Source: Flavivirga jejuensis (lineage in GTDB: Bacteria; Bacteroidota; Bacteroidia; Flavobacteriales; Flavobacteriaceae). Taken from it: a stretch of 64,000 bases of DNA. Positions 19,350 through 63,504 of the stretch are shown here, in pieces. Position 1 is the first letter of the stretch. Each line of letters begins with the position of its first letter. A program made the translations under genes and the position numbers. The stretch covers positions 496,001 to 560,000 of the forward strand of contig NZ_JAUOEL010000001.1 of the NCBI RefSeq assembly GCF_030540765.1, in the 5' to 3' direction. The notes below the pieces were generated by a model that had not been told where the DNA came from, searched no databases, and saw only the letters and a list, made by a program, of their open reading frames with translations.

Positions 19350-19401
19350 AGTTTTTATTTTATTCAAGATTTGACGATAACGTCGAAGGAAGTTTACACT
19401 G

Positions 19402-19492
19402 CCTTTAGCATTTTTTAATTCTAAACTTATTTCAGAACCTTTTGATTCTTAGGTCATTCAGAATGAGGTTGCAATCAGTCAAATCTTTCCTC
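19402..19492 (-). promoter_or_regulatory. SAM-II-like riboswitch in the metK leader
   Basis: Read on the minus strand, the metK 5' leader contains GAGG, then GATTTGACTGATTGCAA (complement of 19469-19485), then CCTC, and further on AATGCTAAAGG (complement of 19402-19412). These are the two conserved blocks of the SAM-II (metA-motif) pseudoknot, and GAGG/CCTC forms the short P1 stem. Between CCTC and AATGCTAAAG is an insert of about 50 nt that can fold into a nested hairpin (ATTCT..AGAAT enclosing AGAATC-aaaa-GGTTCT). The call rests on motif memory; a covariance search would settle it. Confidence 0.75.
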
Positions 19493-19509
19493 TTTATTAT
19501 TTGTGTTGG

Positions 19510-41754: not shown

Positions 41755-41900
41755 TTATAAGCCTGAGTTCGATGTAAGAATCGTAGATAAAAGTCTCACA
41801 TGTTATAAAGAGTCTAAAAACATATTTTATATACATAATTGTCTAATAAACAGTGTTAATAGGGGGTCTTGTTTTTCTTAGGTCGAACTCAGGTTTATAA
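41755..41900. repeat. 146-bp segment bounded by 18-bp inverted repeats (MITE-like)
   Basis: TTATAAGCCTGAGTTCGA at 41755-41772 and TCGAACTCAGGTTTATAA at 41883-41900 are inverted copies with 17 of 18 matches. The trinucleotide CTC directly flanks both outer ends, as a 3-bp target duplication would. The interior has no open frame. It is either a small non-autonomous element or a long-range hairpin. Confidence 0.55.
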
Positions 41901-42042
41901 CTCAATACACTTTCACTATTTAAAGTTTCTAAATAATTTAAGTATCATTGAATTATTTAGAAAAAAAACATAAGAATATAGAGATATTAATAATTTTTAT
42001 GAAAAAATGATTCATTTTTACAAGTAGTATTAAATAAAATTT

Positions 42043-42050
42043 TAGATTTG
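42043..42050 (+). promoter_or_regulatory. -7 box of the arg leader promoter
   Basis: TAGATTTG is a perfect TAnnTTTG, only 4 bp before the leader-peptide ATG at 42055. The expected start site would make the leader mRNA leaderless or nearly so. The -33 region is only a T-run (42015-42019). Confidence 0.55.
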
Positions 42051-42054
42051 TACT

Positions 42055-42129
42055 ATGAAAAATTTAAAAAATAAAATACGTTGTTCTGTTCCCGGTTTGC
42101 CCGCGCGCAATCGCCGCCGCCGCTTCTAG
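42055..42129 (+). CDS. Putative arginine leader peptide (24 aa, Arg-rich)
   Basis: The frame from ATG 42055 to TAG 42127 encodes 24 residues ending PARNRRRRF, with six arginines (R9, R18, R20-R23). Five of the six are CGC codons, in a genome where CGC looks rare, so ribosomes should be sensitive to charged tRNA-Arg. It lies about 225 bp before the arginine biosynthesis operon on the same strand. The GC-rich codon run stands out sharply from the surrounding AT-rich DNA. I did not find a simple terminator directly after it, so the exact attenuation mechanism is unclear. Confidence 0.75.
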   Translation: MKNLKNKIRCSVPGLPARNRRRRF

Positions 42130-42238
42130 TCTTTCTTGTTAGCAAAACCAAAACGTCATTTTAATTTTTTTCATAGTGTCCAAAATATATTTCATAGCAT
42201 TTCAAAAATTAGTTAACTTCTTAGTTAATAGATATATT

Positions 42239-42268
42239 ATGCGCCGTATTTTTCCTCGTCGCCCGTAA
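42239..42268 (+). CDS. Second putative Arg leader micro-ORF (MRRIFPRRP)
   Basis: ATG 42239 to TAA 42266 encodes nine residues, four of them arginine (CGC, CGT, CGT, CGC). The stop codon sits in the GTAA tetraloop of a 5-bp hairpin CGCCC-GTAA-GGGTG (42260-42273). A second hairpin (TGAACT-a-GG / CC-AGTTCA, 42286-42307) follows, and the structural operon begins at 42353. Position and composition suggest a second Arg-sensing element on the same leader. It is too short to prove by itself. Confidence 0.55.
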   Translation: MRRIFPRRP

Positions 42269-42352
42269 GGGTGTGCTTCTGTTTTTGAACTAGGTGAGTC
42301 CAGTTCAGTAATCAAAAAAGGTTAAAATTCAAATTAAAAATAGATACAATAA

Positions 42353-42979
42353 ATGGAGATTGTAATCGCCAATAAATCACATACTAAATACGCAGAAATT
42401 ATTTGCGAGACCATTGCAGAATCGGCAAAGGTTAGAGGTACTGGTATAGCAAAACGTACACCTGAATATATTGCAACAAAAATGGGGAATGGTAATGCTG
42501 TTATTGCTTTAGATGGTGACGTATTTGCTGGGTTTTGTTATATAGAACTCTGGGGTCATGGGAAATTTGTAGCTAATTCTGGTTTAATAGTACATCCAAA
42601 TTATAGAGGAAAAGGCTTAGCAAAAAAGATAAAGCACAAAGTTTTTGAGCATTCCAGAACAAAATTTCCAGATGCTAAAGTATTCAGTATTACAACTGGT
42701 TTAGCTGTTATGAAATTGAATAGTGATTTAGGGTATAAACCAGTTACATTTTCAGAATTAACAGACGATCAAACATTTTGGGATGGATGCCAAACCTGTC
42801 AGAACTATGATGTTTTAACACGCACCAACCGTAAAATGTGTTTGTGTACAGGGATGTTATACGATGGAAAGACAAAAGAAAAAATAGAATCAAAAAAAAT
42901 AAAAGAAAAGGTTTTTAAAAGATTAAAACATATTAAAGAAACCATGTTCTTAAAAAAAGCGAAAAAAACAAAAAAATGA
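42353..42979 (+). CDS. GNAT acyltransferase, probable N-acylglutamate synthase (ArgA-like) of the arg operon
   Basis: 208 residues. GNAT fold with the acyl-CoA loop SGLIVHPNYRGKGLAKKIKHKVFEHS near 82-105. Distinctive C-terminal cysteines (DGCQTCQNYD...KMCLCTGMLY) and a long lysine-rich tail. It is the first gene of the arginine operon and overlaps argG by 4 bp (ATGA). No classical argA or argJ is in the window, so this protein is the natural candidate for acylating glutamate. Whether acetyl- or succinyl-CoA is the donor is not visible. Confidence 0.8.
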   Translation: MEIVIANKSHTKYAEIICETIAESAKVRGTGIAKRTPEYIATKMGNGNAVIALDGDVFAGFCYIELWGHGKFVANSGLIVHPNYRGKGLAKKIKHKVFEHSRTKFPDAKVFSITTGLAVMKLNSDLGYKPVTFSELTDDQTFWDGCQTCQNYDVLTRTNRKMCLCTGMLYDGKTKEKIESKKIKEKVFKRLKHIKETMFLKKAKKTKK

Positions 42980-44151
42980 AAAAATTAGTAATAGCATATA
43001 GTGGCGGATTAGATACATCGTATTGTGCCGTTAGTTTATCTAAAACGTATGATGTACATGCAGTAAGTGTAAATACGGGTGGATTTACAAAAAGTGAAAT
43101 AGAACATATTGAAAGTAACGCTTATAAAATGGGTGTTTCTACATATAAAAATATTGATGCAGTTGCTACATTTTACCAAAAAGTAGTGAAATATTTAATT
43201 TTTGGTAATGTTTTAAAGAATAACAGTTACCCATTATCTGTAAGTGCAGAGCGAATTATTCAAGCGATCGAGATTGTGGAATATGCAAAAAGTATAGGGG
43301 CAGAGTATATAGCACACGGTAGTACAGGTGCAGGAAACGACCAAGTACGATTTGATATGATTTTTCAAACATTGGCTCCAGATATTAAAATTATTACACC
43401 AATTAGAGACGAGAAATTAACAAGACAAGAAGAAATAGAGTATTTAAAATCTGAAGGAATTGATATGCCTTGGGAAAAATCAAAATATTCTGTAAACAAA
43501 GGACTTTGGGGAACAAGTGTTGGAGGTGTTGAAACTTTAGAATCAGAAAAACCATTACCTAATGAAGCGTACCCTTCTCAATTAGAGAAAGAAGGTGAAG
43601 AAAAAGTAACACTTACTTTTAAAAATGGTGAATTTACTGCTTTAAATGGCGAAGAAAATGATCCTCAGATAAATATTGAAAAGCTAGATGATATGGCTTC
43701 TAAATATGCCATTGGTAGAGATATTCATGTTGGTGATACCATTGTTGGTACTAAAGGACGCGTTGGTTTTGAAGCTGCGGCGGCTTTAATTACAGTAAAA
43801 GCACACCATTTATTAGAGAAGCATACATTAACAAAATGGCAATTACAACACAAAGAATATTTATCTAGTTTCTACGGGATGCATTTACACGAAGGTCAAT
43901 ATTTAGATCCTGTAATGAGAGATACTGAAGCCTTTTTGCAGAGTTCTCAAAAAATGGTTTCTGGAGATGTTGTTGTTGCTTTAAAGCCGTATCACTTTTC
44001 TTTAGACGGCATTGTTTCTGATCACGATTTAATGTCTAGTAAATTTAGTACTTATGGTGAAGAAAATAAAGCATGGACAGCAGATGATGCTAAAGGATTT
44101 ATTAAAATTCTAGGAAATCAAAATAAAATATATAGACAAGTAAATTCTTAA
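42976..44151 (+). CDS. argG: Argininosuccinate synthase
   Basis: 391 residues. ATP-pyrophosphatase N-type signature AYSGGLDTSYCAVSL at 6-20, and AHGSTGAGNDQVRFD near 114-128. Condenses citrulline with aspartate. Translationally coupled to the GNAT gene (4-bp overlap) and 3 bp before argC. Confidence 0.96.
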   Translation: MKKLVIAYSGGLDTSYCAVSLSKTYDVHAVSVNTGGFTKSEIEHIESNAYKMGVSTYKNIDAVATFYQKVVKYLIFGNVLKNNSYPLSVSAERIIQAIEIVEYAKSIGAEYIAHGSTGAGNDQVRFDMIFQTLAPDIKIITPIRDEKLTRQEEIEYLKSEGIDMPWEKSKYSVNKGLWGTSVGGVETLESEKPLPNEAYPSQLEKEGEEKVTLTFKNGEFTALNGEENDPQINIEKLDDMASKYAIGRDIHVGDTIVGTKGRVGFEAAAALITVKAHHLLEKHTLTKWQLQHKEYLSSFYGMHLHEGQYLDPVMRDTEAFLQSSQKMVSGDVVVALKPYHFSLDGIVSDHDLMSSKFSTYGEENKAWTADDAKGFIKILGNQNKIYRQVNS

Positions 44152-44154
44152 GCT

Positions 44155-45132
44155 ATGATTAAGGTTGGAATTATTGGAGGTGCAGGTTATACTGCTGGTG
44201 AATTAATTAGATTATTAATTAATCATCCTGAAACTGAGATTGATTTTGTGTTTAGCACGTCTAATGCTGGAAACAAAATCAGCAAGGTGCATCAGGATTT
44301 AGTGGGGTCTTTAGATTTAGAATTTACAGGTACCGTAAATCCAGAAGTAGATGTGTTGTTTTTATGTTTAGGTCATGGGAACTCGGTAAAATTTTTAAAG
44401 AATAATACGTTTTCAGATAAAACAAAGATTGTTGATCTGGGAAATGATTTTAGGTTAGAAAAAGACAAGGTTTTTGATGGTAAAAATTTTGTATATGCTT
44501 TGCCAGAGTTGCAAAAAGAAGCTGTTAAATCGGCTAATTATATTGCGAACCCAGGGTGTTTTGCAACGGCCATTCAATTGGCATTATTGCCATTAGCAGA
44601 AAAGAATTTACTAAATAACGATGTCCATATTAATGCCGTTACAGGTGCAACAGGTGCTGGAACGTCATTATCGGCAACCACGCATTATACATGGAGAGAT
44701 AATAATTTTTCGTATTACAAACCATTTACGCATCAACATTTAGGAGAAATTAATCAATCGGTAAAGCAATTGCAAAATGATTTTTCTTCAGAGATTTTGT
44801 TTATGCCCAATAGAGGGAACTTTTCAAGAGGGATTTTTGCAACCGTTTATACAGACTTTGAAGGTACGGTTGAAGAAGCAATCTCTATGTATAAAGACTT
44901 TTATAAAGATGCAGCATTTACTTTTATTTCAGATGAGGCTATCCATTTAAAGCAAGTGGTTAATACAAATAAATGTATCATACATTTACATAAACATAAT
45001 AACAAATTATTAATTACAAGTGTGATTGATAACTTATTAAAAGGTGCTTCTGGACAAGCGATTCAAAACATGAATTTAATGTTTGGCTTAGAAGAAACAA
45101 CAGGGTTGCAATTAAAAGCAACTTATTTTTAA
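44155..45132 (+). CDS. argC: N-acyl-gamma-glutamyl-phosphate reductase
   Basis: 325 residues. Rossmann motif GIIGGAGYTAGELIRLLINHPE at 5-26; active-site cysteine in ANPGCFATAIQLALLPL; catalytic histidine region KPFTHQHLGEINQ. Reduces the acylglutamyl phosphate to semialdehyde with NADPH. Followed by a 202-bp repeat-filled gap. Confidence 0.96.
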   Translation: MIKVGIIGGAGYTAGELIRLLINHPETEIDFVFSTSNAGNKISKVHQDLVGSLDLEFTGTVNPEVDVLFLCLGHGNSVKFLKNNTFSDKTKIVDLGNDFRLEKDKVFDGKNFVYALPELQKEAVKSANYIANPGCFATAIQLALLPLAEKNLLNNDVHINAVTGATGAGTSLSATTHYTWRDNNFSYYKPFTHQHLGEINQSVKQLQNDFSSEILFMPNRGNFSRGIFATVYTDFEGTVEEAISMYKDFYKDAAFTFISDEAIHLKQVVNTNKCIIHLHKHNNKLLITSVIDNLLKGASGQAIQNMNLMFGLEETTGLQLKATYF

Positions 45133-45134
45133 TT

Positions 45135-45306
45135 CCCACCTAACCTCCCGAAAGGGAGGAATGGATTGAAAAAAAGTAAGAGTAAGCATCCCCCTCCTTC
45201 GGAGGGGCTAGGGGAGGAATTAGTGCGTTAGCGATTGCAGCGGCATCCTTTTTGGAGGCACGAAAAAAAGATATAGCGGAAAGCGCGACCCTTGTGGTAA
45301 CGCCAT
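45135..45306. repeat. Composite intergenic repeats between argC and proC
   Basis: Two hairpins of the CCTCCC/GGGAGG type (CCTCCC-GAAA-GGGAGG; CCCCTCC-TTC-GGAGGGG) are followed by a REP-like unit (GCGTTAGCGATTGCAGCGGC to GCGGAAAGCGCGACC). A related unit core occurs at 57121-57157. Confidence 0.75.
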
Positions 45307-45334: not shown

Positions 45335-46129
45335 ATGAAAATAGCCATTATAGGAACAGGGAATTTAGGAAGTTCAATAGCAAAAGGACTTATTAATAAT
45401 AAATCGTTTACATCATTGTATTTAAGTGATAAAAATACATCGGCTGTTAAAGGTTTTGAGAATGAAGATTACGTAACGTTAACGAATGATAATGCTTTAG
45501 CAGTTGAAGCATCTGATATGGTTATTTTCGCACTTCAGCCAAAGCATATTGACCATGTTTTAACTAATGTTGCATCAAAAATAACCCAAAATCATGTTGT
45601 TATTTCTGTGGCTGCTGGTGTTGCGATTTCTAGAATAGAAGCTATTGTTGGAAGTGATAAAAACATCATCCGTGTGATGCCAAATACAGCGATTTCAATT
45701 GGTAAATCGATGACTTGTTTATCGGCTAATGAAAAAGGGCAGGATAAGATTGGACTGGCTCAAAAGATATTTAACCAATTAGGAACTACTATGGTGATTT
45801 CTGAAGATTTGGTGCAAGCAGCAACCGTTATTTGTGCCAGTGGTATTGCCTTTTGGATGCGCTTAGTACGTGCTACCACACAAGGTGCTATTCAATTAGG
45901 TTTTGAAGCAGAACAAGCACATGAATTAGCAACACAAACCTGTTATGGAGCGGCTAGTTTGTTATTAGAATCTGGAAGACATCCTGAGCAAGAAATAGAT
46001 CGTGTAACCACACCAAGCGGCTGTACTATTGAAGGTTTAAATGCCATGGAGCATGAAGGGTTAAGCTCTGCTTTAATACAAGGTATTGTGGCCTCGTTCG
46101 AAAAAATTAATCAAATTAAAAAGAATTAA
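45335..46129 (+). CDS. proC: Pyrroline-5-carboxylate reductase
   Basis: 264 residues. N-terminal Rossmann GTGNLGSSIAKGL; PNTAISIGKSMTCLS and the C-terminal signature GCTIEGLNAMEHEGLSSALIQGIVASFEK near 228-256. Last step of proline synthesis. Lies inside the arginine operon, one base before argD. Confidence 0.95.
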   Translation: MKIAIIGTGNLGSSIAKGLINNKSFTSLYLSDKNTSAVKGFENEDYVTLTNDNALAVEASDMVIFALQPKHIDHVLTNVASKITQNHVVISVAAGVAISRIEAIVGSDKNIIRVMPNTAISIGKSMTCLSANEKGQDKIGLAQKIFNQLGTTMVISEDLVQAATVICASGIAFWMRLVRATTQGAIQLGFEAEQAHELATQTCYGAASLLLESGRHPEQEIDRVTTPSGCTIEGLNAMEHEGLSSALIQGIVASFEKINQIKKN

Positions 46130-46130
46130 A

Positions 46131-47276
46131 ATGCCATTATTTGACGTTTATCCATTATATAATGTAACCCCAGTTTCTGGGAAAGACATACTCGTTTATG
46201 ATAACGAAGGAACCGAATATTTAGATCTTTACGGAGGTCATGCTGTGATCTCTATCGGACATGCACATCCAAATTATGTTGAAGCAATTACCAATCAAGT
46301 AAACACCTTAGGGTTTTATTCTAATGCGATTCAAAATCCATTACAAAAACAATTAGCAGATAAAATTGAAGCACTATCTGGCTGTAAGGATTACGAATTG
46401 TTTTTATGTAACTCTGGGGCAGAAGCTAACGAAAATGCATTAAAATTAGCCTCCTTTAAAACAGGAAAAGCACGTGTTATTGCATTTAATAACGGATTTC
46501 ACGGACGTACATCGGCTGCTGTTGCTGCAACAGATAATGCTAATATTGTAGCGCCAATAAATGCACAACAAAAAGTCACCTTTTTAGAACTGAATGATGT
46601 AGAAGGTGTTAAAAGAGAATTAGAAAAGGGTGATGTTTGCGCTGTTATTGTGGAGTTCATTCAGGGTGTTGGTGGTTTGGATCAAGGAACTACAGCCTTT
46701 TTCGAACAAGTAGATGCGCTTTGCAAAGCTAATAACACAATGTTTATTGCAGATGAGATTCAATGTGGATATGGAAGGTCTGGAAAGTTTTTTGCGTTTC
46801 AGTATTATAACGTAACGCCAGATATTATATCCATGGCAAAAGGTATGGGGAATGGTTTTCCAATAGGAGGCATATTAATACACCCAGATATTGAAGCCAA
46901 ATATGGGATGCTAGGAACTACTTTTGGTGGGAATCATTTAGCATGTGCAGCAGGTTTAGCAGTTTTAAATACGATTGAGGAAGAAAAACTTATTGAAAAT
47001 ACGAATACTATTTCTGAGTATTTTATTGAAAAAGCGAAAACAATTCCGCAGATAAAAAATATAAAAGGAAAAGGTTTGATGATAGGTTTAGAGTTCGATT
47101 TTGAAGTTGGCGAGCTAAGAAAAAAACTTATTTATGATGAACATATTTTTACTGGCGGCGCATCCAATAAAAAGCTGTTAAGAATTTTGCCTCCTCTGAC
47201 TGTTAAAAAAGAACACGTTGATCAATTTTTTGAAGCGCTTAAAAAGGTTATAACGAAAAATAAAGAAACAGTTTAA
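46131..47276 (+). CDS. argD: N-acylornithine aminotransferase
   Basis: 381 residues from ATG 46131, which gives the usual start MPLFDVYPLYNVTPVSGKD; an upstream in-frame start would overlap proC. Class III aminotransferase motifs: SGAEANENALKLA, FHGRTSAAVAATD, FIADEIQCGYGRSGKFFAFQ and PLP lysine in DIISMAKGMGNGFPIGG. Transfers the amino group from glutamate to the acylated semialdehyde. Its product feeds argF'. Confidence 0.93.
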   Translation: MPLFDVYPLYNVTPVSGKDILVYDNEGTEYLDLYGGHAVISIGHAHPNYVEAITNQVNTLGFYSNAIQNPLQKQLADKIEALSGCKDYELFLCNSGAEANENALKLASFKTGKARVIAFNNGFHGRTSAAVAATDNANIVAPINAQQKVTFLELNDVEGVKRELEKGDVCAVIVEFIQGVGGLDQGTTAFFEQVDALCKANNTMFIADEIQCGYGRSGKFFAFQYYNVTPDIISMAKGMGNGFPIGGILIHPDIEAKYGMLGTTFGGNHLACAAGLAVLNTIEEEKLIENTNTISEYFIEKAKTIPQIKNIKGKGLMIGLEFDFEVGELRKKLIYDEHIFTGGASNKKLLRILPPLTVKKEHVDQFFEALKKVITKNKETV

Positions 47277-47436
47277 AGACTATATATTATGAGATGTCTC
47301 AATCGTACCTCATGTCGACATGATAAAGTAATATTAATAGTAGTAGGTTATTTCGACTGAAAGGAGAAATCACAAAAAAACTTTAGAGATAGAGTGAGAC
47401 TGAAAACTGTTTACTGAACACTGAAAACTAAAAAAA

Positions 47437-48630
47437 ATGAACACACTATTATCCATAGAAAAAAGAAATGCCGTGTTACTTAAAATGGCAGTTCTTTTAG
47501 AACAAGAAAGAAACGCCATTATTGCTATTAATAAAACCGATTTAGAGGCTTATAATGGCGATGATATTTCGATGTTCGATCGTTTAAAAGTAGATGATTC
47601 TAAAGTCGATGAAATGATTAATGCTGTAACGCATTTAGCATCTCAAGAAGATCCTGTGGGGATAGAGCGTTTTAGTTTTAAACATGAGAATGGGATGCAG
47701 GTTTATAATAAAACGGCATCGTTTGGAACGGTGTTAATTATTTACGAATCCAGGCCAGATGTTACGGTAGAAGCTGCAGGGATTGCTTTTAAATCGGGGA
47801 ATAAAATATTGCTTAAGGGTGGTAAAGAATCATTAAAATCAAACTTGAAAATTGTGGAGTTGTGGCATCAAGCATTAAAAGATCATGATGCATCAACCGA
47901 TTGGGTGGAGTATATGCAATTCAATAGAACAGAAACTCAAGCCTTTTTAGAAAAACCAACACAGAAAGTTGATTTAATTGTTCCTCGTGGTGGTGAACGT
48001 TTAATTGCTTTTGTAAAGCAGCACGCTACATGTCCAGTTATTATAAGTGGTCGCGGTAATAACTTTGTTTATGTTCACAAAAAAGCCAATTTGGAGATCG
48101 CTTTAGATGTTATTATTAATGGGAAATCAAAAATATCGGCTTGTAATGCGGTTGATAAAGTTTTAATTGACAAAAACCTTCCTAATAAAGAAGCCTTTAT
48201 AAAAAGCTTAATTTCTAAATTAAAAGCGTCTAATATTCAAATTTTAGGAGATGAAGCAACATGTGAGTTTGATGAGGTTGAGGCATTTGAATCTGATGAT
48301 ATTTGGTATGAAGAATTTTTAGATTATAAGATTGTTGTTGGAGAAATAGCATCGAATGCCGATGCTATTGCCAAAATAAATAAATATTCTGGCGGACATT
48401 CATCTGTTATAGTAACAACCCATGAAGCAGAAGCTAAATTGTTTATGGAAAATGTAGATACAGCTGCGGTATATCATAATGCTTCAACACGATTTACAGA
48501 CGGTGGTCAGTTAGGACTTGGTGGCGAATTAGCTATAAGTACAGATAAATTACACCAAAGAGGTCCGATCGGTCTGCAACATTTGGTAACTAATAAATGG
48601 TACGTTCATGGAGATGGACAAATAAGATAA
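47437..48630 (+). CDS. proA: Gamma-glutamyl phosphate reductase
   Basis: 397 residues. Aldehyde-dehydrogenase fold with IYESRPDVTVEAAGIAFKSGNKILLKGGKE, PRGGERLIAFVKQHATCPVI, and catalytic cysteine in GKSKISACNAVDKVLID. ASTRFTDGGQLGLGGELAISTDKLHQRGPIGL is the C-terminal proA block. Works with proB; the two genes are almost adjacent (2 bp). Confidence 0.95.
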   Translation: MNTLLSIEKRNAVLLKMAVLLEQERNAIIAINKTDLEAYNGDDISMFDRLKVDDSKVDEMINAVTHLASQEDPVGIERFSFKHENGMQVYNKTASFGTVLIIYESRPDVTVEAAGIAFKSGNKILLKGGKESLKSNLKIVELWHQALKDHDASTDWVEYMQFNRTETQAFLEKPTQKVDLIVPRGGERLIAFVKQHATCPVIISGRGNNFVYVHKKANLEIALDVIINGKSKISACNAVDKVLIDKNLPNKEAFIKSLISKLKASNIQILGDEATCEFDEVEAFESDDIWYEEFLDYKIVVGEIASNADAIAKINKYSGGHSSVIVTTHEAEAKLFMENVDTAAVYHNASTRFTDGGQLGLGGELAISTDKLHQRGPIGLQHLVTNKWYVHGDGQIR

Positions 48631-48632
48631 CC

Positions 48633-49394
48633 ATGAAAAAGAAAAGAATATTATTAAAAATAGGATCTAATACGCTTACCAAAGAAACCGATAATATTTC
48701 GAGAGGGAAGATTGAAGATATTGCAAATCAAATAGCGAAGTTGCAAGATACCTGTGAGTTTATTATTGTAAGTTCTGGTGCTATTGCTGTAGCAAAACAG
48801 TTTGTAAAACTTGAAAGTAAACGAAAAGAAATTTTTGTAAAACAAGCCTTAGCGTCTATTGGTCAGCCACATCTTATAAGAATATATCAAGAAATTTTTA
48901 GAGAGTTGGGCTTATTAACCTCACAATGTTTATTGTCGTATTCAGATTTTGAAAAGCAAGAAAGTAAAACAAATATTGTAAACACCATAAATGTATTAGT
49001 CAACAATAATTATATCCCTATTATTAATGAAAATGATACCGTAGCTACCGACGAAATTAAATTCGGGGATAATGATAAATTAGGCGCACTTACTGCTTCT
49101 CTTTTAAGTGCCGATCTATTTATAATAGCGACCAATACCAATGGTATTTATACTAAGGAGTCCATTGAAAAAGGAACTCCAAAAACCATTGAATTGGTTG
49201 AGGATTTTAATGCATTAAAACATCAAGTTGTAAATTCTAAATCAACTCACGGTACTGGTGGTATGCAATCTAAAATAGATGCCATTTCAGTAGCCAAACA
49301 ATCAAACGTAGAAACATGGATCGTAAACGGATTAGAAGACAATTTTATAATAAATGCGCTTGAGAATAAGATCCTGTTTACTAAAATAAAGTAA
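48633..49394 (+). CDS. proB: Glutamate 5-kinase, short form without PUA domain
   Basis: 253 residues from ATG 48633 (an upstream start would overlap proA). Amino-acid-kinase motifs: LLKIGSNTLTKE, VSSGAIAVAKQ, INENDTVATDEIKFGDNDKLGALTASLL and GTGGMQSKIDAI. The family's usual C-terminal PUA domain (about 100 residues) is absent. First step of proline synthesis. Confidence 0.94.
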   Translation: MKKKRILLKIGSNTLTKETDNISRGKIEDIANQIAKLQDTCEFIIVSSGAIAVAKQFVKLESKRKEIFVKQALASIGQPHLIRIYQEIFRELGLLTSQCLLSYSDFEKQESKTNIVNTINVLVNNNYIPIINENDTVATDEIKFGDNDKLGALTASLLSADLFIIATNTNGIYTKESIEKGTPKTIELVEDFNALKHQVVNSKSTHGTGGMQSKIDAISVAKQSNVETWIVNGLEDNFIINALENKILFTKIK

Positions 49395-49396
49395 TT

Positions 49397-49840
49397 TTGA
49401 ATATTTTTGAATTAAAATATGTAGCTATTAACAGCCCGCTTTATGATGCTGCGGTCGCATTAAGAGTAAAACTCTTTTTCAAAAATATGGAAAATAGTCA
49501 TGATTTGATTCATGACGATCTTGAATCTAAAGGCATTCATTTAGTCTGTTTAAATGAAAAAGAAGTCGTTGGAACAGGACGATTAAATATTAAAAATAAC
49601 ACAAGCATAATTTCTCAAATGGCCATTAAAAAAGCCTTTCAAAAAAAGGGAATTGGCTTAAAAATATTAAAAGAGCTCATTGCGCTAAGTAAAGAAAATA
49701 AGGTATCTAGGATAGAACTTAATGCCAGAGAAACAGCTTTGCCATTTTATGAGAAACTTAATTTTAAAGCCTTAGGAAATAAATATCCATCAAAGAAAAC
49801 AAAGATTATTCATCAGAAAATGGAATTGATCATTAAATAA
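49397..49840 (+). CDS. GNAT-family N-acetyltransferase (TTG start)
   Basis: 147 residues. The TTG at 49397, 2 bp after proB, is preferred because residues encoded before the next ATG (KYVAINSPLYDAAVALRVKLFFKN) match the conserved N-terminal strand/helix of small GNATs. Acyl-CoA loop SQMAIKKAFQKKGIGLKILKELIALSKE; C-terminal ALPFYEKLNFKALGNKY. It is embedded between proB and argF'; its substrate is unknown but it is a second candidate acyltransferase for the arginine pathway. Confidence 0.8.
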   Translation: MNIFELKYVAINSPLYDAAVALRVKLFFKNMENSHDLIHDDLESKGIHLVCLNEKEVVGTGRLNIKNNTSIISQMAIKKAFQKKGIGLKILKELIALSKENKVSRIELNARETALPFYEKLNFKALGNKYPSKKTKIIHQKMELIIK

Positions 49841-49847
49841 AATCAAA

Positions 49848-50786
49848 ATGAAACATTACACCTCCATACACGATATAGACGACATCAATTCTTGGATTGA
49901 AGAAGCCAAAGCGTTAAAGCTGAATCCCTTAAAAGATGGGGGCTTAGGAAAAAATAAAACCATCGGTTTATTATTCTTTAACTCTAGTTTGCGTACCCGT
50001 TTAAGTACCCAAAAAGCAGCATTAAATTTAGGTATGAATCCTATTGTTATGAATGTGTCTGGAGATGCCTGGGGTATCGAATTAGGAGATGGCACTGTTA
50101 TGAATGGTAATACCGCAGAACATATAAAAGAAGCCGCAGCAGTGGTGTCTCAGTATTGCGATATTATTGCTGTAAGAGCGTTTCCAACGTTAACAGATAA
50201 AGCAAAAGATGAAAGCGAGCAGGTTTTAAAATCGTTTGTCAAATATGCATCGGTTCCAATAGTTAATATGGAGAGTGCTACAGGACACCCATTACAAGGG
50301 TTAACAGATGCGATAACTATTTCAGAGCATGCAAAAGTTGCAAAGCCAAAAGTGGTTTTAAGTTGGGCGCCTCATATTAAAGCTTTGCCACATGCGGTAG
50401 CAAATAGTTTTGTTCAAGCCATGCAAAAAATGGATGTTGAGTTTGTAATTACGCATCCAGAAGGTTACGATTTAAACCCAGAAATAACTGGTGATACACC
50501 AATAACATATAACCAGGAAGAAGCGTTTGCAAATGCCGATTTTGTGTATACTAAAAACTGGAGTTCATATTCAGATTATGGAAAAATTTTAAATGAAGAT
50601 CCTAATTGGATGATTACGAAAGAAAAGCTAGGTGATGCTAAATTTATGCACTGTTTACCAGTAAGACGAAATGTGGTAGTAGAAGATGCGGTTTTAGATA
50701 GTGATAGCTCGTTGGTTATTCAACAAGCTAATAACAGAACCTATGCAGCACAATTGGTGTTGAAGAAAATATTAGAAAATTTATAA
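49848..50786 (+). CDS. argF': N-acylornithine carbamoyltransferase (N-succinylornithine type likely)
   Basis: 312 residues. Carbamoyl-phosphate loop FFNSSLRTRLSTQ near 44-55, MESATGHPLQGLTDAITI, and KFMHCLPVRRNVVVEDAVLDS. The sequence DAWGIELGDGTVMNGNTAEHIKEAA and VRAFP belong to the Bacteroidetes/Xanthomonas acylornithine branch, not to ornithine carbamoyltransferase. The specificity-determining residue in NTAEH is A90. From memory this is Glu in the acetylornithine enzyme and Pro in the Bacteroides succinylornithine enzyme, and small residues favour succinylornithine. Its product, N-acylcitrulline, needs the ArgE-like deacylase encoded downstream. Confidence 0.9.
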   Translation: MKHYTSIHDIDDINSWIEEAKALKLNPLKDGGLGKNKTIGLLFFNSSLRTRLSTQKAALNLGMNPIVMNVSGDAWGIELGDGTVMNGNTAEHIKEAAAVVSQYCDIIAVRAFPTLTDKAKDESEQVLKSFVKYASVPIVNMESATGHPLQGLTDAITISEHAKVAKPKVVLSWAPHIKALPHAVANSFVQAMQKMDVEFVITHPEGYDLNPEITGDTPITYNQEEAFANADFVYTKNWSSYSDYGKILNEDPNWMITKEKLGDAKFMHCLPVRRNVVVEDAVLDSDSSLVIQQANNRTYAAQLVLKKILENL

Positions 50787-50819
50787 ATTATAGACCATTT
50801 CACTTCGAGACATCTGCTA

Positions 50820-51119
50820 AAATTTTAGCAAGCGGATGTGATGATGTAATTGGGGTGTCATTTAGAAGAGGTAGGACTGAAGAATCTTTAGAGATTAATA
50901 ATAAAGATTCTTCGACTCCGACAATTGTCGGAATGCTCTGAATGACAAATAATTGAAAATTAAGTGTTTATATATAATAAAAAAAACGTCAATGGTAGAT
51001 CTGTGTTAAAAATTTTAACTAGCGGATGAAATGACTTAATTGGGGTGTCATTCAGAAGGAGGTACGACTGAAGAATCTTTAAAAATTAATTATAAAGATT
51101 CTTCGCTTTGCTCTGAATA
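50820..51119. repeat. Two further copies of the GTCATTCAG palindromic repeat with a shared upstream box
   Basis: Copies at 50857-50946 and 51047-51119 occupy most of the 420-bp argF'-argB gap. Each is preceded by a conserved 5' box (AATTTTAACTAGCGGATGAA type, at 50820 and 51010), also found at 6102 before a copy in the first cluster. The first copy here shares about 65 identical bases with the copy ending at 6470, including the CGACAATTGTCG insertion. Confidence 0.85.
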
Positions 51120-51206
51120 ACAAGCGATTACAAATTAAGTATTTATAAAAAACGTCAATGGTAGCGTAGTCGAGAAGCGAAACCTATATTAATAGAATAA
51201 ATAAAA

Positions 51207-51983
51207 ATGGGAAAATTATCCATAGTAAAAATAGGAGGAAATATTATTGAAGACGAAACGTCTTTAATAGCTTTTTTAAAATTATTTTCTAATTTAGAAG
51301 GAAAGAAAATCTTGGTGCATGGAGGTGGCAAACGTGCTACATTGGTCGCATCAAAATTAGGAATCGCATCTAAAATGATAAACGGCAGACGTATTACCGA
51401 TGCCGAAACTTTAGAAGTGATCACCATGGTTTATGGCGGTCTGGTTAATAAAAATATTGTTGCCAAATTACAAGCCTTAAACACCAATGCCATTGGTTTA
51501 ACGGGAGCCGATATAAATAGTGTCGCATCAGATAAAAGACCCGTAAAAGATATCGATTTTGGTTTTGTTGGAGATGTTAAACAGGTGGCTCACGAATCTA
51601 TAGATAAGTTAATACAAGCCGATTTTACACCTGTTTTTTGTGCCATTACACACGATGGGAACGGACAGTTATTAAATACCAATGCAGATACCATTACATC
51701 ACAAGTAGCAGTAGGTATGAGTAAGCTATACAAAACATCCATTTATTATTGTTTTGAATTAAATGGCGTTTTAGAAGATATTAATGATAAGAATTCGGTA
51801 GTAAAACACATCGATTCAGAGAGATACAAAAACCTATTAGAAAAAGGTATTATTGCCGATGGGATGTTACCAAAGCTAGAAAATTGCTTCGATGCCTTAA
51901 ATAATGGTGTTAGTACAATTAATATGGGAAATACATCGATGTTAACCCAAGAAAATGATAATTTTACAACCATAACTTTATAA
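51207..51983 (+). CDS. argB: N-acylglutamate kinase
   Basis: 258 residues. Amino-acid-kinase fold: VKIGGNIIED, LVHGGGKRATLVASKLGI, GLTGADINSV, and the C-terminal ADGMLPKLENCFDALNNGVSTINMGN. Second step of arginine synthesis. Stop and argE start are 1 bp apart. Confidence 0.94.
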   Translation: MGKLSIVKIGGNIIEDETSLIAFLKLFSNLEGKKILVHGGGKRATLVASKLGIASKMINGRRITDAETLEVITMVYGGLVNKNIVAKLQALNTNAIGLTGADINSVASDKRPVKDIDFGFVGDVKQVAHESIDKLIQADFTPVFCAITHDGNGQLLNTNADTITSQVAVGMSKLYKTSIYYCFELNGVLEDINDKNSVVKHIDSERYKNLLEKGIIADGMLPKLENCFDALNNGVSTINMGNTSMLTQENDNFTTITL

Positions 51984-51984
51984 C

Positions 51985-53049
51985 ATGACGCAGCAGGAAT
52001 TAATAAACGATGCCATATCACTTTTAAAAAAGTTGATAGAAACACAGTCGTTTTCTTCAGAAGAAGATCAAACGGCGTTGCATATTGAAGATTGGTTTAA
52101 ACGCTATCATATTGATTATAAAAGAACACAAAATAATGTTTGGGCCATCAACAAGTATTTTGATGAAAGTAAGCCAACGTTGTTGCTAAATTCACATCAC
52201 GATACCGTAAAACCCAATAGTGCCTATACCAAAGATCCGTTAAAAGCTATTGTAGAAGATGGGAAATTATATGGTTTAGGGAGTAATGATGCAGGAGGAT
52301 GTTTAGTTTCGTTAATTGCCACATTTACTCATTTTTATAATCATGAGGATTTAAAATATAACCTAGTAATTGTCGCTTCCGCGGAAGAAGAAAGCAGCGG
52401 GCCAAACGGATTAAATAGTATGCTAGCCGTTATTCCAAAAGTAGATGTAGCCATTGTAGGCGAACCAACACTCATGAATTTAGCAGTAGCCGAAAAAGGG
52501 TTAGTGGTTTTTGATGCTGTAGTTAAAGGAACACCAAGTCATGCCGCACACCCTAATGATAACAATGCCATTTATAATACCATCGAAGTACTTCAATGGT
52601 TTAAGGATTTTAAGTTTGAAAAAGGCTCCGAAGCATTAGGCGATGTAAAATTAACGGTGACACAAATTAATGCAGGAAAACAGCATAATGTAGTTCCAGC
52701 AGATGTACAATTAGTAATAGATGTACGAGTAAATGATGCCTATAGCAATTCAGAAATTGCGGACATATTACAGGAGAAATCACCGTGCACAAGTATAACA
52801 CCACGTAGCCTACGTTTAAATTCGTCAAGCATTCCATTAGACCACGATTTAGTTAAAGCAGGAATCGCCATTGGAAGAACAACCTACGGTTCACCAACGC
52901 TATCAGACCAAGCCGTGTTATCCTGTCCGTCATTAAAACTAGGCCCTGGAGATAGTACGCGCTCGCATTCTGCAGATGAATTTATTTATGTGAATGAAAT
53001 AGAGGAAGGTATTAAGATATATGTTGAATTATTAGAAAAGGTGTTGTGA
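51985..53049 (+). CDS. argE: M20-family N-acylcitrulline/N-acylornithine deacylase
   Basis: 354 residues. Metallopeptidase M20 motifs: LLNSHHDTVKP (first metal His/Asp), GLGSNDAGGCLVSL (bridging Asp), ASAEEESSGPNGL (catalytic Glu-Glu), AIVGEPT, and C-terminal GPGDSTRSHSADEFIYVNEIEEG (last metal His). It removes the acyl group late in the pathway. Because argF' makes N-acylcitrulline, deacylation here should yield citrulline for argG rather than ornithine. Confidence 0.9.
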   Translation: MTQQELINDAISLLKKLIETQSFSSEEDQTALHIEDWFKRYHIDYKRTQNNVWAINKYFDESKPTLLLNSHHDTVKPNSAYTKDPLKAIVEDGKLYGLGSNDAGGCLVSLIATFTHFYNHEDLKYNLVIVASAEEESSGPNGLNSMLAVIPKVDVAIVGEPTLMNLAVAEKGLVVFDAVVKGTPSHAAHPNDNNAIYNTIEVLQWFKDFKFEKGSEALGDVKLTVTQINAGKQHNVVPADVQLVIDVRVNDAYSNSEIADILQEKSPCTSITPRSLRLNSSSIPLDHDLVKAGIAIGRTTYGSPTLSDQAVLSCPSLKLGPGDSTRSHSADEFIYVNEIEEGIKIYVELLEKVL

Positions 53050-53053
53050 AATG

Positions 53054-53095
53054 AGTTTGAAGTTTGAAGTTTGAAGTTTGAAGTTTGAAGTTTGA
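53054..53095. repeat. Six tandem AGTTTGA heptamers
   Basis: Perfect repeats with 7-bp unit just after the argE stop codon. Likely a variable simple-sequence tract. Confidence 0.9.
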
Positions 53096-53183
53096 AGTGT
53101 TCGTTAACAGACTTTTTTCTCGATTCTAAAATTAAAAAATTAAGATTTATGTTGAGTTGTGTAATTGTTTAACAGTTCTGTCA

Positions 53184-53248
53184 TTCCCGCGAAGGCGGGA
53201 ATCCATATAAGTAAGAATAAAGAATAAAAGATTCCCGCCTTCGCGGAA
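53184..53248. repeat. Inverted repeat of the TTCCCGCGAAGGCGGGAA type
   Basis: TTCCCGCGAAGGCGGGAATC (53184-53203) and GATTCCCGCCTTCGCGGAA (53230-53248) are near-perfect inverted copies in the argE-argH gap. This palindrome is dispersed in many bacterial genomes. Confidence 0.8.
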
Positions 53249-53267
53249 ATAAAAAAAAGTATATAAG

Positions 53268-54542
53268 ATGAAACTCTGGGATAAAGGTATATCAATCGAT
53301 AAAAAAATAGAACAATTCACTGTTGGAAACGATAGAGAAATAGATATTCATATAGCGAAGTACGATGTTATTGCATCTAAAGCACACGCTAAAATGCTTC
53401 AGAAAATTGGTATTATAACAATTGAAGAATTGGTTGAATTGTTAGGCGGATTAAAGATTCTAGAAACCCAGATTGAAAACGGTACGTTTGTTATTGAGCC
53501 TCAGTTTGAAGATGTACATTCTAAAATAGAATTCGAATTAACCAAATCGTTGGGTGAGGTTGGTAAAAAGATCCATACAGCACGTTCTAGAAACGATCAA
53601 GTTTTAGTGGCTTTACATTTATATTATAAAGAGAATTTAGGTATTGTAAAAGAAAAAACAAAAACGTTTTTTACAACACTTTTAGAATTAGCTGAAACGC
53701 ATAAGGATAAAGTCTTACCAGGGTATACGCATTTACAAGTAGCCATGCCATCATCCTTTGGGTTATGGTTTTCTGCCTATGCAGAGTTAATGATAGACGA
53801 TGTATATTTATTAAATGCCGCCATTCAAACGGTTGATCAAAATCCGTTGGGGTCTGCTGCTGGTTATGGAAGTTCATTTCCTATAGATCGAGAATTAACC
53901 ACCAAAGAAATGAACTTTACTACTTTAAAATATAATGTAGTTGCAGCTCAAATGAGTCGTGGGAAAAGTGAGCGAACTATTGCGGCAAGCTTAGGGAGTC
54001 TTTGTAATACGATGTCTCGTTTTGCTATGGATGCTTGTTTGTATATGAGTCAGAATTTTGGATTTATTTCCTTTCCAGACGAACTGACTACAGGGAGTAG
54101 CATTATGCCTCATAAGAAGAACCCAGATGTATTTGAATTGATTCGCGGCAAGTGTAATAAAATACAAGCCTTGCAAAGCGAAATGATTTTAATAACCAAT
54201 AACCTACCAAGTGGTTACCATAGAGATTTTCAGTTATTAAAAGAAAACATCATTGCTGCTTTCGAGGAGGTAAAAGATATTCTGGATATTTTCAATTATT
54301 CCATTCAACAAATTATTGTGAAAGATATTGATGTACATAGCGATTTGTACAAATACCTATTTACGGTTGATAATATAAATACTTTGGTTGTGGAAGGGCA
54401 AAGTTTTAGAGAAGCTTACCAGAAAATTGGCGGACAAGTACAAGATGGAACCTATGTTGCTGATACTTCTAAAAAACATACGCATGCGGGAAGTATTCAC
54501 AATTTGTGTTTAGATGGGATTAGAGCTAAATTTCCTGAATAA
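53268..54542 (+). CDS. argH: Argininosuccinate lyase
   Basis: 424 residues. Fumarase-superfamily motifs: EDVHSKIEFELTK, TARSRNDQVLVALHLY, PGYTHLQVAMPSSFGLWFSAY, and the signature GSSIMPHKKNPDVFELIRGK near 275-295. Releases arginine and fumarate, closing the pathway. It is about 30 residues shorter than the enterobacterial enzyme, which is usual for Bacteroidetes. Confidence 0.95.
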   Translation: MKLWDKGISIDKKIEQFTVGNDREIDIHIAKYDVIASKAHAKMLQKIGIITIEELVELLGGLKILETQIENGTFVIEPQFEDVHSKIEFELTKSLGEVGKKIHTARSRNDQVLVALHLYYKENLGIVKEKTKTFFTTLLELAETHKDKVLPGYTHLQVAMPSSFGLWFSAYAELMIDDVYLLNAAIQTVDQNPLGSAAGYGSSFPIDRELTTKEMNFTTLKYNVVAAQMSRGKSERTIAASLGSLCNTMSRFAMDACLYMSQNFGFISFPDELTTGSSIMPHKKNPDVFELIRGKCNKIQALQSEMILITNNLPSGYHRDFQLLKENIIAAFEEVKDILDIFNYSIQQIIVKDIDVHSDLYKYLFTVDNINTLVVEGQSFREAYQKIGGQVQDGTYVADTSKKHTHAGSIHNLCLDGIRAKFPE

Positions 54543-63291: not shown

Positions 63292-63380
63292 ATTTTTATA
63301 AAATTTCTTGAAAAAAATTAGGATTTTAACTTTTTCTGAACGAATATTTGCATTCACAAAGTTCAATAACTTATTGAAAT

Positions 63381-63498
63381 GTTATCAAGAAAGGCGGAGG
63401 GATTAGACCCATTGAAGCCTTAGCAACCCTTTACTAGTAAAGAAGGTGCTAAATTCTACCCCGATCTGGACATGTATCAGATATCACGGATAGATAAC
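63381..63498 (+). promoter_or_regulatory. SAM-I (S-box) riboswitch
   Basis: P1 is GTTATC (63381-63386) with GATAAC (63493-63498). Inside are the S-box core AAGAAAGGCGGAGGGA, the P3 segment GACCCATTGAAGCCT followed by AGCAACCC, and GAAGGTGCTAAATTC of P4. All are in consensus order. A weak hairpin with T-run follows (63505-63525). It precedes a methionine-pathway gene, as expected. Confidence 0.93.
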
Positions 63499-63504
63499 CA
63501 AACG

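What the first reader, a model, noticed from the sequence alone, without database searches (positions are those of the whole stretch)
42055..42129. GC-rich Arg-codon micro-ORF as arginine attenuator leader
A 24-codon frame ending in four consecutive CGC codons plus two more Arg codons sits upstream of the arginine operon. Its GC-rich coding run is unlike any neighbouring noncoding DNA, so a chance origin is unlikely. Peptide-mediated arg control of this kind is not something I know as described in Bacteroidetes.
Basis: partly seen in the sequence, partly recalled or inferred. Interest (0 to 1): 0.75.

Follow-up and report, generated by a model that had tools for sequence, protein, structure and literature searches.

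The report
Arginine leader peptides before arginine operon
A tiny gene whose last codons are almost all arginine sits at the very start of the arginine-making operon of a flavobacterium, and its relatives keep such genes, so it probably lets ribosomes sense arginine shortage and switch the operon; such leaders are known elsewhere, but I found none reported for arginine synthesis in this group.

Summary
Window 42055-42129 (+) encodes MKNLKNKIRCSVPGLPARNRRRRF*, 223 nt before a GNAT-argG-argC-...-argH cluster. It is conserved: an ORF with at least three Arg in its last 12 codons sits in 80 of 81 arginine leaders (window plus 80 named close relatives; shuffles 2.2), in 113 of 130 family genomes carrying the GNAT gene (shuffles 6.5) and in 37 of 67 leaders of the wider class (shuffles 6.6). 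In 101 uORF1s CGC is 70% of the late Arg codons, against 6% in 14 window genes.

New here: the -7 box ends 4-5 nt before this ATG in 85 of 104 leaders, so the ORF is probably leaderless; a second Arg ORF (MRRIFPRRP*, 42239-42268) follows, apparently a shrunken form of the ...RRRP* leader of other genera; the RNA has a covarying helix P1, hairpin P0 and hairpin H2 with loop AGGUGNGUCC; no Rfam match.

Best reading: ribosome-mediated arginine attenuation. The output is unresolved: hairpin H1, overlapping the uORF2 stop, is at most a weak terminator; two class relatives have a textbook antiterminator/terminator. Nothing is shown experimentally.

The parts
42043..42050 (+). -7 promoter box TAGATTTG (TAnnTTTG type), ending 4 nt before the uORF1 ATG, which predicts a leaderless mRNA starting at or next to the AUG
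   Evidence: Read. In 85 of 104 leaders flagged with uORF1 (window included) the box TAnnTTTR ends 4 nt (71) or 5 nt (14) before ATG. The sigma-A box spans -12 to -5 in F. psychrophilum (PMC9723704, passage). TSS not measured.
42055..42129 (+). uORF1 (the finding): MKNLKNKIRCSVPGLPARNRRRRF*, Arg-codon leader peptide
42055..42083 (+). 5' strand of helix P1, inside the first half of uORF1
   Evidence: Duplex in the window -10.2 kcal/mol; native pairing beats swapped partners in 79 of 87 other leaders; top pair of an all-segment scan, 54 of 69
42151..42175 (+). 3' strand of helix P1, after the uORF1 stop
42212..42229 (+). hairpin P0 (GTTAACT-TCTT-AGTTAAT), starting 48 nt before H1
   Evidence: Fold of the window -4.6 kcal/mol; conserved in uORF1-bearing leaders
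42239..42268 (+). uORF2: MRRIFPRRP*, apparently a shrunken counterpart of the ~27-codon ...RRRP* leader peptide of other genera; its stop codon lies in the loop of H1
42260..42273 (+). H1: CGCCC-GTAA-GGGTG short hairpin overlapping the last Arg-Pro-stop codons of uORF2; weak terminator-like site
   Evidence: Pattern in 111 of 130 family leaders; pair counts; terminator-like score 9
42286..42307 (+). H2: hairpin TGAACT-AGGTGAGTCC-AGTTCA with loop motif AGGUGNGUCC
   Evidence: Loop pattern in 105 of 130 family leaders; stem covaries; fold of the window -7.9 kcal/mol
42353..42979 (+). GNAT-family acetyltransferase, first gene of the operon
   Evidence: Pfam PF00583 and PF13508; no NCBIfam hit
42976..44151 (+). 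argG, argininosuccinate synthase
   Evidence: NCBIfam argG models, best E 2.1e-84 but below their curated cut-offs
44155..45132 (+). argC
   Evidence: TIGR01850 above its cut-off
45335..54542 (+). rest of the cluster: proC, argD-type aminotransferase, proA, (proB-like, second GNAT), N-acetylornithine-type carbamoyltransferase, argB, argE-type deacylase, argH
   Evidence: NCBIfam hits for all but the two in brackets (argD and argE types below cut-off); proB-like and the second GNAT named by eye

Best explanation
uORF1 is a translated leader peptide that senses charged tRNA-Arg for the arginine operon. Transcription starts at or next to its AUG (leaderless; inferred from the promoter box). With enough arginine the ribosome runs through the run of rare CGC codons and leaves. 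When arginine is short it stalls there, and the position of the stalled (or queued) ribosome decides whether helix P1 forms, that is, whether the first half of uORF1 pairs with the segment after its stop. That changes the folding of the following P0-H1-H2 module and so lets the operon be expressed. In many other genera the sensor is the longer uORF2, whose ...Arg-Arg-Pro-stop codons form the 5' arm of H1, so a stalled ribosome would directly cover H1. In the window lineage uORF1 was probably added upstream and uORF2 shrank. Supported by comparison: conserved Arg-codon ORFs, P1, P0 and H2 as RNA helices, box-to-ATG spacing. Inferred: translation, stalling on arginine shortage, direction of control. 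Unknown: whether the final step is transcription termination (H1 as a weak terminator, or Rho), translation of the GNAT gene, or RNA decay.
For: Arg-rich ORFs upstream of the arginine genes far above shuffles: 80 of 81 and, in the wider class, 37 of 67, 113 of 130. CGC is 278 of 397 Arg codons in the last nine codons of 101 uORF1s, against 8 of 124 in 14 window genes; in-frame pN/pS is 0.50-0.67 against 0.84-1.69 in the other frames, in four groups. -7 box at fixed spacing in 85 of 104, a TAnnTTAG variant in 13 more. P1: 79 of 87 and top of a scan over all segment pairs. P0. H2 covariation: pair 2 formed in 104 of 105 against shuffle mean 56.7, max 71; pair 6 in 92 of 105 against 64.4, max 75. 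In the 50 of 58 uORF2-only leaders that end in RP*, the last Arg codon is CGC in 50 while the one before is CGT 37, CGC 10. L154 and L155 show a classical antiterminator/terminator behind Arg leader peptides. The same genome has a Trp-codon leader followed by a terminator. In Salmonella speF, pausing at consecutive Arg codons in low arginine changes mRNA folding (PMC6386406, abstract and passages).
Against: No expression, TSS or ribosome data. No strong intrinsic terminator in the window: only H1, score 9, against 13 for the terminator at the end of the preceding gene and 17-18 for L154 and L155. Such sites are in 47 of 129 family leaders (five shuffle sets: 2-8), 41 of them H1, so most leaders do not reach even this threshold. 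No covarying pairing links the uORF1 Arg codons or P1 to H1/H2, so the signal path is not found. RNAalifold on 109 aligned modules gives only the invariant CGCC:GGUG pairing, -1.8 kcal/mol, no covariation. 17 of 130 family leaders and 30 of 67 class leaders have no such ORF. L025 keeps uORF1 without recognisable H1 or H2; L027, L032 and L076 have only degenerate ones (by eye). H2 pair 7 shows no covariation (52 of 105, shuffles 54.6). pN/pS is only moderately low.
Confidence: 0.8

Rival explanations
1. Arrest-peptide sensor: the nascent peptide (Arg-Arg-Pro at the stop codon of uORF2, or the RRR run of uORF1) senses free arginine in the ribosome tunnel and stalls at the stop when arginine is plentiful, as TnaC does for tryptophan.
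For: 50 of 58 uORF2-only leaders end in R-P-stop, and many share Pro/Arg/Phe positions upstream. A Pro codon just before the stop is slow (recalled).
Against: uORF1 peptides vary apart from the Arg run and the NKIR part, which P1 pairing can explain; the window's uORF2 has nine residues; class leaders vary in length and ending.
Confidence: 0.1
2. The ORFs are passengers: the conserved object is an RNA (C-rich CGC runs as a Rho loading site or pairing strand), and translation does not matter.
For: CGC bias far beyond codon usage; invariant CGC in the last uORF2 Arg codon; H1 and H2 persist where uORF2 has lost its ATG or stop.
Against: Lowest pN/pS in frame 0 in all four groups; box-to-ATG spacing; Arg runs in unlike peptides at shifted places across the class; CGC/CGT interchange.
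Confidence: 0.07
3. H2 is a DNA operator (GAAC...GTTC inverted repeat) for a repressor rather than an RNA hairpin.
For: Near-palindromic, one arginine-linked copy per genome, conserved half-sites.
Against: Stem positions swap C-G, A-U, U-A and U-G while staying paired, as an RNA helix would; it lies about 230 nt downstream of the predicted start.
Confidence: 0.06

Closest known systems
Bacteroid-trp RNA (RF01692), tryptophan peptide leader of Bacteroidetes
   Same: Short leader ORF with a run of the operon's own amino-acid codons; an AU-rich helix pairs the ORF 5' half with a segment after its stop; the same genome has one (MNIILNNTWWWSFRNLRS*).
   Different: Trp not Arg; a terminator hairpin with T-run follows (read by eye); its -7 box is 19 nt before ATG, not 4; no match of this family's model to the arginine leader; no H1/H2 module seen.
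Salmonella speF orf34 leader (PMC6386406)
   Same: Consecutive Arg codons in a leader ORF sense low arginine and alter downstream mRNA folding, with a hairpin just after the stop (passages).
   Different: Controls polyamine synthesis, not arginine synthesis; works through Rho, RNase G and RBS sequestration; no peptide similarity seen.
S. aureus rbfL leader (PMC13009471)
   Same: Arg-codon leader peptide sensing arginine limitation (passages).
   Different: Represses translation by occluding the RBS; two Arg codons (AGA, AGG); different phylum and target.
Classical his/trp/leu attenuators of enterobacteria (recalled)
   Same: Codon run for the end product in a leader ORF upstream of the biosynthetic operon.
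   Different: No strong terminator/antiterminator pair found in the window; found in L154 and L155.

Membership tests
classical ribosome-mediated transcription attenuator | Short ORF with a run of codons for the operon's end product, upstream of that operon | tested here: met
classical ribosome-mediated transcription attenuator | Intrinsic terminator with a mutually exclusive antiterminator between leader ORF and first gene | tested here: inconclusive
   In the window only H1, a weak terminator-like site (score 9), and no covarying antiterminator. Met for L154 and L155.
classical ribosome-mediated transcription attenuator | Leader ORF is translated and operon expression rises on starvation | not testable with these tools
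   No expression data held; coding signal only
Bacteroid-trp RNA (RF01692) | Match to the covariance model | tested here: not met
   No match of this family up to E 10 in 41950-42400; the model does match elsewhere in the same genome
Bacteroid-trp RNA (RF01692) | Helix between leader-ORF 5' half and a segment after its stop | tested here: met
   P1; compared by eye with the alignment
any Rfam family, T-box and riboswitches included | Match at the curated threshold in the leader | tested here: not met
leaderless mRNA | Transcription start at or next to the AUG | tested here: inconclusive
   Promoter-box spacing only; no TSS data

The most novel reading that the evidence does not exclude
Flavobacteriaceae control arginine synthesis with a leader switch that does not rest on a canonical terminator: a leaderless Arg-codon ORF, in places doubled by a second Arg leader, read out by an undescribed RNA module (P0-H1-H2 with loop AGGUGNGUCC, perhaps a CGCC:GGUG pseudoknot with the Arg-Pro codons), so that sensor ORFs were swapped during evolution while the output module stayed.
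Probability: 0.33. Interest if true: 0.75.

Novelty: new variant of a known kind. Interest (0 to 1): 0.62.

Why it matters
It gives a specific, conserved candidate for how a large group of bacteria that lack Shine-Dalgarno sequences control arginine synthesis. It would extend leader-peptide control in this phylum to arginine, tie it to leaderless translation, and offer a natural series (uORF2 only, both, uORF1 only) showing how a sensor can be replaced while its output element stays. The H2 module is a testable new RNA element.

Tried and rejected
Flavo-1 RNA as the output domain: it lies at 45218-45294, not in the leader, and has a different structure. Rfam in general: only sub-threshold, chance-like hits. 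Strong intrinsic terminator in the window leader: not found, only H1 at score 9. H2 as a general element of several operons: of 73 exact matches in 72 of 199 family genomes, 63 lie upstream of the GNAT gene, one (L218) shows H1 and H2 without GNAT found nearby, and nine look like chance matches, the same number as with the reversed control pattern. A CGCC:GGUG pseudoknot: possible in all 109 aligned modules but invariant, so untested, and the neighbouring bases do not covary (by eye). Pairing of the uORF1 Arg codons with downstream segments: strong with the segment before H1 (-8.84 kcal/mol) but no better than swapped (-8.74; 37 of 69). uORF2 as the only sensor of the window lineage: it has lost ATG or stop in many relatives (by eye). 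A tree to count gains of uORF1 was not made, because 65 leaders were fetched with only 150 nt of the gene. Arrest peptide and DNA operator: see rivals.

Limits. The 80 named loci are the best 80 of 146 and so close kin. Of the 130 family leaders, 63 came through the H2 pattern, two from the class search and 65 were fetched for having GNAT without an exact H2 match; together they are all 130 of 199 that carry GNAT. The class set is 69 of the 70 matching genomes (own left out), counted without L103 and L104, so 67; three of these (L105, L106, L162) are still of the window's family. One search's other-amino-acid counts in the class set reach 19 of 67 (Leu). The window itself was left out by my script and thinned away; one search gives its own values. 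P1 tests used 87 of 101 and 69 of 85 leaders after thinning; three of the 104 flagged uORF1 leaders, with ORFs of 35-47 codons, were left out and are probably not uORF1. P-values are not corrected for number of tests or shared descent. The H1 pattern itself forces some of the counted pairs, and H2 stem counts chose the best of three bulge sizes per sequence.

Full report
WHAT WAS CLAIMED AND WHAT IS THERE. The finding names a 24-codon frame at 42055-42129. It is there: MKNLKNKIRCSVPGLPARNRRRRF* on the + strand, with four CGC in a row, then one Phe codon and TAG. It ends 223 nt before a GNAT-family gene that starts a cluster with argG, argC, proC, an argD-type aminotransferase, proA, an N-acetylornithine-type carbamoyltransferase, argB, an argE-type deacylase and argH (argG, argD and argE types lie below the curated cut-offs).

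CONSERVATION. A scan with the GNAT protein gave 80 named relatives, the best 80 of 146. With the window, 80 of 81 leaders hold an ATG-ORF of 8-60 codons, within 400 nt upstream, with at least three Arg in its last 12 codons; shuffled leaders give 2.2 on average (maximum 6), the antisense strand gives 2, and no other of 13 amino acids counted exceeds 13. The exception is L065. An ORF of the far, short uORF1 type is in 73 of the 81. As a less biased set I took 199 family genomes, nearly all from different genera: 130 carry the GNAT gene. I assembled the leaders of all 130, and 113 have such an ORF (shuffles 6.5, maximum 13; antisense 10). In the wider class 70 of 197 genomes carry the gene; of the 67 leaders counted (own, L103 and L104 left out) 37 have such an ORF (shuffles 6.6, maximum 13; antisense 8; for Leu 19). 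Their sequences differ but cluster Arg near the C-terminus, as in ...HMQRRFRRRPSGRV* (L122) and ...PVRRRRYFFRV* (L140). So 17 of 130 and 30 of 67 do not show one.

TWO LEADER ORFs. The window holds a second Arg ORF, MRRIFPRRP* (42239-42268), whose stop codon lies in the loop of a short hairpin H1. In other genera this place is taken by a longer ORF, often of about 27 codons, typically ending RRRP* at the same hairpin. In the 130 genomes, 50 have the far type (uORF1) and 76 an Arg ORF in the near place (uORF2), of these 58 without uORF1 and 18 with both. In many Polaribacter and Tenacibaculum leaders uORF2 has lost its ATG or its stop while the H1 sequence stays (by eye). The simplest reading, not tested on a tree, is that uORF1 was added and uORF2 then shrank.

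CODING SIGNAL. In 101 uORF1s the last nine codons hold 397 Arg codons: 278 CGC, 78 CGT, 22 CGA, 11 AGA, 7 AGG, 1 CGG. Fourteen window genes hold 124: 58 AGA, 31 CGT, 16 CGA, 9 AGG, 8 CGC, 2 CGG. pN/pS in frame is 0.64, 0.50, 0.61 and 0.67 in four same-length groups, lower than in either other frame (0.84-1.69), but only moderately low.

LEADERLESS START. The -7 box TAnnTTTR ends 4 nt (71) or 5 nt (14) before the ATG in 85 of 104 leaders flagged with uORF1; one each has 6 and 12 nt, and 17 have no exact box, of which 13 have TAnnTTAG 4-6 nt before the ATG and four nothing similar. In F. psychrophilum the sigma-A box lies at -12 to -5, and leaderless mRNAs are only 5.5% (PMC9723704, passages). 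At 4 nt the start would fall on the A of the AUG. The uORF2-only leaders have the box most often 7 nt before ATG (24 of 58; 25 without an exact box). This is inference from spacing; no start site was measured.

RNA STRUCTURE. A scan of all pairs among 11 leader segments, comparing native pairing energy with partners swapped between species, put two first: the first 33 nt of uORF1 with the segment 28-66 nt after its stop (P1; better in 54 of 69, nominal P 7e-8) and the two neighbouring segments that hold hairpin P0 (50 of 69, P 7e-7); no other pair fell below P 0.04. A direct P1 test gave 79 of 87; in the window the duplex is -10.2 kcal/mol. The best stem in the P0 region is longer than shuffled in leaders with uORF1 (6.85 against 5.10, n 46; most often starting 48 nt before H1, 24 of 46), less so in uORF2-only leaders (5.20, 4.52, n 56). 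H2, with loop AGGUGNGUCC, is in 105 of 130: its second pair is C-G 55, A-U 30, U-A 10, U-G 9, one broken (104 of 105 paired; shuffle mean 56.7, max 71), the sixth is formed in 92 of 105 (64.4, max 75), the seventh is no better than shuffled (52; 54.6). H1 is weaker: three pairs nearly always (partly forced by the search pattern), the fourth 84 of 100, the fifth 53 of 100. In the 50 uORF2-only leaders ending RP*, the last Arg codon is CGC in 50 while the one before is CGT 37, CGC 10, not Arg 3, which suggests an RNA constraint on CGCC on top of coding. CGCC could pair with GGUG in the H2 loop (109 of 109), but this never varies and so proves nothing. H2 is arginine-linked: of 73 exact matches in 199 family genomes, 63 lie before the GNAT gene, one (L218) has H1 and H2 without GNAT found nearby, and nine look like chance, as many as with the reversed control pattern. 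Among the 69 class leaders the exact loop motif was seen only in L103, of the same family.

HOW IT MAY WORK. The logic of a run of rare codons for the operon's own product, in the first ORF of the mRNA, is that of a ribosome-mediated attenuator. In L154 and L155 the full classical layout is visible: the end of the Arg leader ORF (GGCAGGCU) can pair with the 5' arm of a strong terminator (hairpin about -18 kcal/mol followed by TTTTTT); a third genome of that family, L127, has an Arg leader ORF but was not flagged. In the window the only terminator-like site is H1 (CGCCCGTAAGGGTG followed by TGCTTCTGTTT; score 9, against 13 for the terminator of the preceding gene). Such sites occur in 47 of 129 other family leaders (five shuffle sets 2-8), 41 of them H1, and in 27 of 67 class leaders (shuffles 2-9), some of which may end the upstream gene. 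I found no pairing that carries a signal from uORF1 to H1/H2. The output is therefore open: weak termination at H1, Rho, translation of GNAT, or mRNA decay. For leaders with uORF2, a ribosome stalled at the last Arg codons would cover the 5' arm of H1 directly; this is inference.

KNOWN RELATIVES. The same genome holds a Bacteroid-trp leader with MNIILNNTWWWSFRNLRS* followed by a terminator (terminator read by eye), whose helix between ORF start and post-stop segment resembles P1; its model does not match the arginine leader. Arg-codon leaders are shown experimentally in Salmonella speF (PMC6386406; abstract and passages) and S. aureus rbfL (PMC13009471; passages), with other targets and mechanisms. 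F. psychrophilum has 'strong clues' for leader-peptide attenuation upstream of amino-acid operons (PMC9723704; passages); the text seen does not name the operons and supplements were not open to me, so arginine may be among them. Passages of PMC4833913 and PMC6847099 do not mention arginine. Searches of the held library listed no paper, by title and start of abstract, on Arg leader peptides before arginine synthesis genes in Bacteroidetes; three listings were cut (12 of 16, 12 of 31 and 15 of 46 shown), and most subscription papers are not held.

VERDICT. A real, conserved, very probably functional arginine leader; mechanism inferred; new variant of a known kind.

Noticed in passing
41756-41893: A 138-nt stretch bounded by an inverted repeat (TATAAGCCTGAGTTCGA ... 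TCGAACTCAGG), small-mobile-element-like; the exact pattern was found only once in the held genome.
   Followed up: partly
45218-45294: Flavo-1 RNA (RF01705, 50.0 bits) between argC and proC, inside the arginine cluster and beside GC-rich hairpin repeats.
   Followed up: partly
63379-63500 and 19395-19498: A SAM riboswitch (RF00162, + strand) and a SAM-II long-loop riboswitch (RF01726, - strand) in one window.
   Followed up: no
L154 and L155, leader regions: Textbook-like Arg attenuators (leader peptide, antiterminator, terminator with T-run) in two genomes of another family of the class.
   Followed up: partly
L069, L232, L236, L283: A third leader type in the family, long peptides ending ...RFRRPLxV* without the H1 or H2 pattern.
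   Followed up: no
L218: H1 and H2 present but no GNAT gene found in the 900 nt that follow; another reading frame lies there.
   Followed up: no
L229: Trp leader peptide MNIILNNTWWWSFRNLRS* followed by a terminator in the window's own genome.
   Followed up: yes
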